From positions 62,001 through 126,000 of the forward strand of contig JARYLU010000004.1 in NCBI GenBank assembly GCA_029907475.1: 64,000 bases of DNA, read 5' to 3'. Both the position numbers and the translations under genes were made by a program. The stretch's first letter is position 1. Every line of letters begins with the position of its first letter. This stretch comes from Bacillota bacterium (GTDB lineage: Bacteria > Bacillota > DSM-12270 > Thermacetogeniales > Thermacetogeniaceae). A model generated the notes under the pieces. The model saw nothing but the letters and a program-made list of their open reading frames with translations, was not told the DNA's origin and ran no database searches. Of this stretch, positions 45,371-48,439 are shown one piece after another.

Positions 45371-45937
45371 TTATGATTCATTAGTTGACTCCCCGGTGTA
45401 AAATCTCAACACACTATCTCCATATCTTTCCTCTCGAACCGGCCTTTGGCTTGCTGTTATTTCCTCTCCGAAAGCGCTCCGGGCAATCACTAATCCTCCT
45501 GGAAACAAAAGCTTCAAACGGTATACGCAATCCAGGGTAGGCTCGACTAAACCCTGCCTAAAGGGGGGGTCAACAAAGATTAAATCAAATCGGTATCCCC
45601 CTTTTTTTAAAAGAGCGAGGGCTTTCGTAACATCACACCTGTAAATTTGTGCCTGGTTAAGAAAGCCGGTAATTTTCAAATTTTCCTCGATCAAAGCCGC
45701 ATTCTGGGGATTTTTCTCTACAAAGATAATCTTTTGGGCCCCTCGGCTCAAGGCTTCTATTCCAATACTCCCGGTTCCTGCGAAAAGATCTAAAAAGATA
45801 CTCTCGGGTACCCGTGTTGCAATGATATTGAAAAGAGCTTCTTTAACATAATCGGTAGCGGGTCTCAAGTTTTTCGCTTTTCTGGTTTTCAACCGTTTCC
45901 CCTTTGCAATTCCGCTAATAACACGAGGCCCTGACAT
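45371..45937 (-). CDS. rsmD: 16S rRNA (guanine-966-N2)-methyltransferase RsmD
   Basis: 188 residues. RVISGIAKGKRL start; FLDLFAGTGSIGIEALSRGA (SAM binding) and FVDPPFR (DPPF catalytic). A TATAAT on the minus strand near 45996 is a possible promoter with a weak -35. Confidence 0.95.
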   Translation of the reverse strand: MSGPRVISGIAKGKRLKTRKAKNLRPATDYVKEALFNIIATRVPESIFLDLFAGTGSIGIEALSRGAQKIIFVEKNPQNAALIEENLKITGFLNQAQIYRCDVTKALALLKKGGYRFDLIFVDPPFRQGLVEPTLDCVYRLKLLFPGGLVIARSAFGEEITASQRPVREERYGDSVLRFYTGESTNES

Positions 45938-47857: not shown

Positions 47858-48125
47858 CAAATGGTACAAATTACCAAAAGAAAATATGTATAAATTCGTT
47901 TGATCTGTGCAAAATAGGTAATGGCTAAAGGGTCTTCATGGGGAGGTGCCCTAACCCAGTAACCTAGCTTTAATTGCAGAAAAGGTTACAGAAAACCCTC
48001 CCCCATGAGCTCTTCCTCCAGTTTCTCCTCTCCCACGCCATTGAGGTTCGTCTTTACCATCAGGTAAGCGCCCTCAATGGCGGCGAAAAAATGCCATGAG
48101 GATTCTAACTCGTGGCTTTTTTTTC
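47858..48125 (+). ncRNA. Candidate structured RNA or structured 3' leader after nrdJ
   Basis: Two large stems lie in series: CATGGGGAGG (47936-47946) with CCTCCCCCATG (about 47997-48008) enclosing GTAACC/GGTTAC (47959-47964, 47984-47989), then CGCCATTGAGG/CCTCAATGGCG (48036-48046, 48072-48082) with a CTTTACC/GGTAAG inner pair. They end in a terminator (48093-48125). No ORF is present. It may be the nrdJ 3' end or an independent RNA; identity unknown. Confidence 0.45.
48093..48125 (+). terminator. Rho-independent terminator
   Basis: GCCATGAG (48093-48100) pairs with CTCGTGGC (48109-48116), one wobble, followed by eight T. Confidence 0.88.
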
Positions 48126-48161
48126 GTTTTTTGCGGAATCCAGGTAACTCCATTATCTAAA

Positions 48162-48186
48162 CAGATGTTTAGAGACTAAACATCTG
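48162..48186. repeat. Perfect inverted repeat at the stop of the small coiled-coil gene
   Basis: CAGATGTTTAG and CTAAACATCTG, 11 bases each, 3-base loop. The gene's stop TAG (48176-48178) is inside it. No strong U-run follows on the minus strand. Confidence 0.7.
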
Positions 48187-48439
48187 TAAATTTAGAGTTT
48201 TTTCGGAGAAAATCGGTACCAAAACCTCGCTTCCGGAGAGTGGCTTCTATTAATTCAATTGTTTTTTTTAAATCATTAAGTTCCCGATCCAGCCTCTTTC
48301 GCATCCCATCGGATAAATGAGCAGGAGTTTTACATAAAGTAAATTCCCACTCCCGCTCAAGATCAGACTGCTCCTCATAAAGACGGTTCAATTCATTTTT
48401 TAACTCTTGAGTGCTCATCTGTTCATAATCTGCCTTCAT
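48176..48439 (-). CDS. Small helical hypothetical protein
   Basis: 87 charged residues, two probable helices forming a coiled coil (MSTQELKNELNRLYEEQSDLERE, then RLDRELNDLKKTIELIEATL). One cysteine. No family recognised. ATG 48439; ribosome site GGAGGCAGTG lies about ten bases upstream. Stop codon lies in a perfect hairpin (48162-48186). Convergent with nrdJ. Confidence 0.65.
   Translation of the reverse strand: MKADYEQMSTQELKNELNRLYEEQSDLEREWEFTLCKTPAHLSDGMRKRLDRELNDLKKTIELIEATLRKRGFGTDFLRKNSKFTDV

What the first reader, a model, noticed from the sequence alone, without database searches (positions are those of the whole stretch)
47858..48125. Strong structured RNA candidate after nrdJ
Two large stems in series followed by a terminator in about 190 bases with no ORF. 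The first stem encloses a second paired element. No known class was recognised (the SRP GGAAGCAGCC motif and the T-box motif are absent). It could be a 3' end of nrdJ mRNA, a small RNA, or a 6S-type RNA.
Basis: seen in the sequence. Interest (0 to 1): 0.6.

Follow-up and report, generated by a model that had tools for sequence, protein, structure and literature searches.

The report
CsfG sporulation small RNA after nrdJ
The structured stretch after nrdJ is this bacterium's copy of CsfG, an already described small RNA switched on in the developing spore; Rfam still lists it on the wrong strand as the 'ylbH leader', and no target of it is known.

Summary
It does belong to a known class. The region matches RF00516 'ylbH leader' on the minus strand, below the gathering score. 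That strand is wrong: published Northern blots in B. subtilis found only the reverse-strand RNA, the sporulation sRNA CsfG. Tests here agree. The near-invariant 24-nt core TCTTCCTCCRGTTTCTCCTCTCCC is at 48011-48034. A sigma-F-type promoter lies upstream on the + strand in 88 of 134 homologues (1 of 134 on the other strand). Hairpin wobbles favour the + strand (207 GU, 87 AC). Stems covary. The core occurs in 130 of 255 genomes with SpoIVA and 0 of 44 without it. The gene sits divergently beside rsmD (ylbH) in about 130 of 146 loci; in this genus nrdJ lies between them, hence 'after nrdJ'. Mechanism is inferred: a forespore sRNA with a masked first half and an open CU-rich second half, probably pairing with mRNA. 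Neither a long conserved partner nor a generic anti-Shine-Dalgarno preference could be shown. New member of a known kind.

The parts
47888..47916 (+). sigma-F/sigma-G-type promoter: GTATA (-35), 14-nt spacer, GTGCAAAATA (-10)
   Evidence: same type upstream of 88 of 134 homologues on this strand, 1 of 134 on the other, shuffles mean 1.2; the window copy fits both the F and G patterns
47923..48124 (+). csfG small RNA, about 200 nt; start inferred as about 7 nt after the -10 element, end in the T-run
   Evidence: identity from PMC3574147
47922..47933 (+). 5' strand (UGGCUAAAGGGU) predicted to pair with 48009-48020, covering the first half of the core
   Evidence: invariant pairs, so no covariation support
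47936..48008 (+). stem P1 (UCAUGGGGAGGU with CCC..CCCCCAUGA) enclosing hairpin P1a 47959-47965/47983-47989
   Evidence: 97% of cells paired, 4 of 11 pairs changed on both sides
48011..48034 (+). CU-rich core UCUUCCUCCAGUUUCUCCUCUCCC, near-invariant in the homologues found; second half predicted single-stranded
48036..48082 (+). hairpin P2 (CGCCAUUGAGG ... CCUCAAUGGCG); this stem sequence is conserved in the window's family
   Evidence: 94% of cells paired, 5 of 14 pairs changed on both sides, U-G wobbles on this strand
48093..48124 (+). intrinsic terminator of csfG (8-bp stem, T8); probably also ends nrdJ transcripts
   Evidence: T-run of 5 or more 3' of the core in 107 of 129 homologues
47974..48126 (-). 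Rfam RF00516 'ylbH leader' match, i.e. the complement of csfG; annotated strand judged wrong
   Evidence: 31.2 bits, gathering 50, E 7.3e-05; E 1e-4 over the genome
46115..47857 (+). nrdJ (ribonucleotide reductase), in this genus lying between rsmD and csfG
45371..45937 (-). rsmD (= ylbH), usual divergent neighbour of csfG
47986..48153 (-). 55-aa ORF antisense to csfG; judged not a gene
   Evidence: length, start and stop vary between relatives, most without a start codon; no Pfam hit above cut-off

Best explanation
This is csfG, a free-standing small RNA gene made in the forespore. SHOWN here by sequence: a + strand promoter of sigma-F/G type, covarying stems P1 and P2, a 24-nt CU-rich core nearly unchanged across spore-forming Firmicutes, an intrinsic terminator, presence only in genomes that keep the sporulation gene spoIVA, and usual position divergent from rsmD. 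SHOWN in the literature: in B. [quoted passage not shown] INFERRED: during sporulation sigma-F then sigma-G transcribe it; the 5' strand masks the first half of the core in the extended P1 stem; the second half (GUUUCUCCUCUCCC) stays open between P1 and P2 and acts as a C-rich seed that pairs with purine-rich stretches near ribosome binding sites of target mRNAs, as RoxS and FsrA do, lowering their translation or changing their stability. The pairing step is a working hypothesis only (about 0.55). In this genus read-through from nrdJ may make some of the RNA outside sporulation as well. The confidence given is for identity as CsfG on the + strand.
For: Identity: RF00516 match on the complement and PMC3574147, which shows by Northern that this element is the reverse-strand sRNA CsfG; core in 130 of 299 phylum genomes, reversed-pattern control 0 of 299; rsmD as divergent neighbour in about 130 of 146 loci. 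Strand: promoter 88/134 against 1/134; GU 207 against AC 87 in hairpins scored symmetrically, p 2e-12, control region 65 against 70. RNA: covariation score 0.245 against shuffled 0.153, 39 against 13.7 double-change cells, slid versions 34-50% paired against 93%. Sporulation: 130/255 with SpoIVA, 0/44 without (Fisher p 8e-13); own genome has SpoIVA and two sigma-F/G-like factors. Accessibility: mean unpaired probability 0.82 for the last 13 core bases, 0.25 for the first 11, over 79 homologues. C-rich sRNA analogy: PMC8216469, PMC4409812.
Against: The Rfam score is below the gathering threshold (31.2 of 50). No transcript data exist for this organism. For the pairing step: the core does not bind 48 translation starts of this window better than shuffled versions of itself (30 of 100 shuffles as low for the open segment; the 16S tail 0 of 100), and no second extended complementary site stands out in 13 genomes. 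Strict invariance of 24 nt is more than an ordinary Shine-Dalgarno seed would need. 125 of 255 SpoIVA-positive genomes lack the core at 2 mismatches or fewer, so it is not universal in spore formers. Genomes are related, so the Fisher p overstates independence.
Confidence: 0.95

Rival explanations
1. Cis-acting leader of rsmD (ylbH) on the minus strand, as Rfam RF00516 states.
For: Rfam match on that strand; usual position upstream of rsmD.
Against: In this genus the whole nrdJ gene lies between, on the opposite strand; promoter and wobble tests point to the + strand; Northern in B. subtilis found no RNA of that strand.
Confidence: 0.02
2. 3' UTR or terminator structure of nrdJ only.
For: 30 bases between the nrdJ stop and the csfG promoter, no terminator found in between.
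Against: Homologues are found without nrdJ in nearly all genomes (4 of 146 loci have it) and carry their own promoter.
Confidence: 0.02
3. A small protein gene on the minus strand (55 aa), the conserved core being coding sequence.
For: Open frame 48153-47986; core frame reads VGEEKLEEELM in the family.
Against: No conserved start or stop, frame length changes between relatives; conservation is of every base, not of codons; P2 loop indels not in threes.
Confidence: 0.01
4. It is CsfG, but CsfG acts through a protein: the 24-nt core with its half-masked stem is a binding site for an RNA-binding protein of the forespore, rather than a seed for mRNA pairing.
For: Near-invariance of 24 nt; no tuned Shine-Dalgarno binding and no long conserved RNA partner; Hfq co-purification in B. 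subtilis.
Against: Part of the core is predicted single-stranded and C-rich, as in pairing sRNAs RoxS and FsrA; hfq deletion only modestly lowers CsfG.
Confidence: 0.3

Closest known systems
CsfG sRNA of Bacillus subtilis (Marchais et al. 2011, read only through later papers), equal to the complement of Rfam RF00516
   Same: Core sequence, strand, promoter type, terminator, neighbourhood of rsmD (ylbH), presence in spore formers
   Different: CCAG instead of CCGG in the core; family-specific P2 stem CGCCATTGAG/CTCAATGGCG and longer 5' stem; nrdJ between rsmD and csfG
RoxS (RsaE) and FsrA sRNAs
   Same: C-rich unpaired stretches in Firmicutes sRNAs (as described in PMC8216469 and PMC4409812)
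   Different: Other regulators (ResDE, Fur) and known targets; no homology tested or claimed
6S RNA
   Same: About 200-nt structured RNA
   Different: No 6S match in Rfam searches; hairpins in series and an intrinsic terminator instead of one long open-complex-like stem

Membership tests
CsfG | CU-rich conserved core between hairpins | tested here: met
   48011-48034 exact to TCTTCCTCCRGTTTCTCCTCTCCC
CsfG | Transcribed antisense to the Rfam ylbH element | tested here: met
   promoter and wobble asymmetry; sequence evidence only, no transcript data for this organism
CsfG | sigma-F/sigma-G-type promoter | tested here: met
   consensus match at 47888-47916 and family-wide; dependence itself not testable here
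CsfG | Confined to endospore formers | tested here: met
   0 of 44 SpoIVA-negative genomes, 130 of 255 positive
CsfG | Next to rsmD (ylbH) | tested here: met
   about 130 of 146 loci; in this genus separated by nrdJ, rsmD 2 kb away
CsfG | Expression in the forespore | not testable with these tools
   no RNA data
Rfam RF00516 (ylbH leader) | Score above gathering threshold (50 bits) | tested here: not met
   31.2 bits, E 7.3e-05
Rfam RF00516 (ylbH leader) | Leader of rsmD/ylbH on its strand | tested here: not met
   nrdJ in between, promoter on the opposite strand
6S RNA | Match to Rfam 6S models | tested here: not met
   no hit at gathering or at E up to 10

The most novel reading that the evidence does not exclude
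The half-masked, near-invariant 24-nt core is not an mRNA seed but the binding site of a dedicated forespore RNA-binding protein (or of one fixed RNA partner), so CsfG would be a scaffold or sponge conserved since early spore formers; in this genus the nrdJ neighbour additionally ties it to ribonucleotide reductase transcription.
Probability: 0.25. Interest if true: 0.6.

Novelty: new member of a known kind. Interest (0 to 1): 0.3.

Why it matters
CsfG is a strongly conserved small RNA of spore-forming bacteria and still had no known target in the papers read here (2021, 2022). This copy, in a family with relatives named Syntrophomonadaceae, is separated from rsmD by nrdJ, which is natural evidence that it is a free-standing gene and that Rfam's 'ylbH leader' entry is on the wrong strand. 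The masked/open split of the core gives a concrete site to mutate.

Tried and rejected
Rfam at gathering threshold: no hit in the window. tRNA/tmRNA: none. Small-protein reading of the antisense 55-aa ORF: not conserved, Pfam only a sub-threshold FTCD_C match. Long complementary partner of the core (wobble allowed, 3 mismatches or fewer) in 13 genomes: only csfG itself stands out; own genome 14 matches against 12 for the reversed control. Generic anti-Shine-Dalgarno preference: not above shuffles. The original CsfG paper (PMC3218505) is not held, so its content is cited through later papers. A first count of the base pairs failed on string length and was repeated.

Full report
OBSERVATION. The stretch 47858-48130 (+) folds at -89.9 kcal/mol against -62.3 (sd 4.6) for dinucleotide shuffles, z -5.98. 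The minus strand folds just as well, so the strand had to be settled otherwise.

IDENTITY. A permissive Rfam search finds RF00516 'ylbH leader' on the minus strand, 48126-47974, 31.2 bits, E 7.3e-05, below the gathering score of 50. The family is found in 33 of 41 genomes (own and relatives) at E up to 0.1. PLoS One 2013 (PMC3574147) reports that in B. subtilis the ylbH 'leader' could not be seen on a Northern blot, whereas the reverse strand gave a strong signal, and identifies it with the sporulation RNA CsfG. [quoted passage not shown] a 2022 paper repeats that no target is known and that disrupting such sRNAs gave no obvious sporulation defect. A 2025 paper says in passing that CsfG regulates sporulation mRNAs, citing the 2011 paper, which I could not read.

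STRAND. Upstream of the core, a sigma-F-type promoter pattern occurs in 88 of 134 homologues on the + (csfG) strand, 1 of 134 on the reverse strand of the same stretch, 1 of 134 on the other side, and 1.2 on average in shuffles. The window's copy is GTATA-N14-GTGCAAAATA at 47888-47916. In hairpins 3' of the core, found with a score that treats G-U and A-C alike, G-U outnumbers A-C by 207 to 87 (p 2e-12); a control region gives 65 to 70. A T-run of 5 or more follows the core in 107 of 129.

STRUCTURE. On 17 family sequences, 93.3% of cells pair, 13 pairs show changes on both sides (shuffles 7.6), 39 cells (13.7), covariation score 0.245 (0.153); sliding the partners drops pairing to 34-50%. The structure was derived from these same sequences, so these figures lean towards it; the shuffles do not remove relatedness. 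The core itself is invariant, so pairing of its first half with the 5' strand UGGCUAAAGGGU is predicted but not tested by covariation. Over 79 homologues the first 11 bases of the core are mostly paired (0.25 unpaired) and the last 13 open (0.82).

DISTRIBUTION. The core with up to 2 mismatches is in 130 of 299 genomes of the phylum, nearly always once; the reversed pattern in none. SpoIVA is in 255 of these 299. I compared the two lists by hand: none of the 44 SpoIVA-negative genomes has the core (Fisher p 8e-13; relatedness not corrected). In families f23 and f11 a member that lacks SpoIVA (G118, G185) also lacks the core while relatives shown there have both. The named records of the collection scan are mostly Bacillaceae and other Firmicute lineages known for endospores; two oddly named MAG contigs carry the usual Firmicute gene order.

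NEIGHBOURHOOD. In about 130 of 146 loci rsmD (ylbH) lies mostly 300-900 bases from csfG on its 5' side and on the opposite strand, followed by coaD and often ylbJ. Only in the window's genus (L006, L008/L135, L021) was nrdJ seen between them. This explains 'after nrdJ', and argues against a leader of rsmD or a mere nrdJ 3' end as the general nature of the element. With no terminator found between nrdJ and the csfG promoter, nrdJ messages probably run through csfG: inferred, not shown.

MECHANISM. Forespore transcription, termination and the masked/open core are supported by sequence and literature. What the open segment binds is unknown. A seed for mRNA ribosome-binding regions is the natural guess from RoxS and FsrA, but the two tests I could make gave no support: the core binds 48 translation starts of the window no better than its own shuffles, unlike the 16S tail, and there is no recurring long complement in 13 genomes. 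A protein-binding role is a live rival.

VERDICT. A well-supported new member of a known sRNA, with a correction of strand already made in the literature but not in Rfam, and a natural rearrangement that separates it from rsmD. Modest interest.

Noticed in passing
window 47974-48126 (-): Rfam release 15 still describes RF00516 as a cis-regulatory leader on the strand opposite to the transcribed RNA.
   Followed up: yes
L081:7025, L082:5907: Contigs titled Acetobacteraceae and Desulfovibrio MAGs carry csfG with rsmD, coaD and ylbJ: Firmicute-type contigs, probably mis-binned.
   Followed up: partly
L016:1501-1638 (G003:C147): Second csfG copy in one genome, with a short 5' part and no rsmD nearby; G065 also has two cores.
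   Followed up: no
window 48161-48187: Perfect 12-bp inverted repeat with 3-base loop (ACAGATGTTTAG / CTAAACATCTGT) between the minus-strand 87-aa ORF and csfG.
   Followed up: no
window 48176-48439 (-): 87-aa ORF conserved beside csfG in the genus (60-72% identity in L006 and L008), only weak coiled-coil-type Pfam matches, no family assigned.
   Followed up: partly
phylum survey: 125 of 255 SpoIVA-positive genomes lack the core at 2 mismatches or fewer; whether they have a diverged csfG or none was not examined.
   Followed up: no
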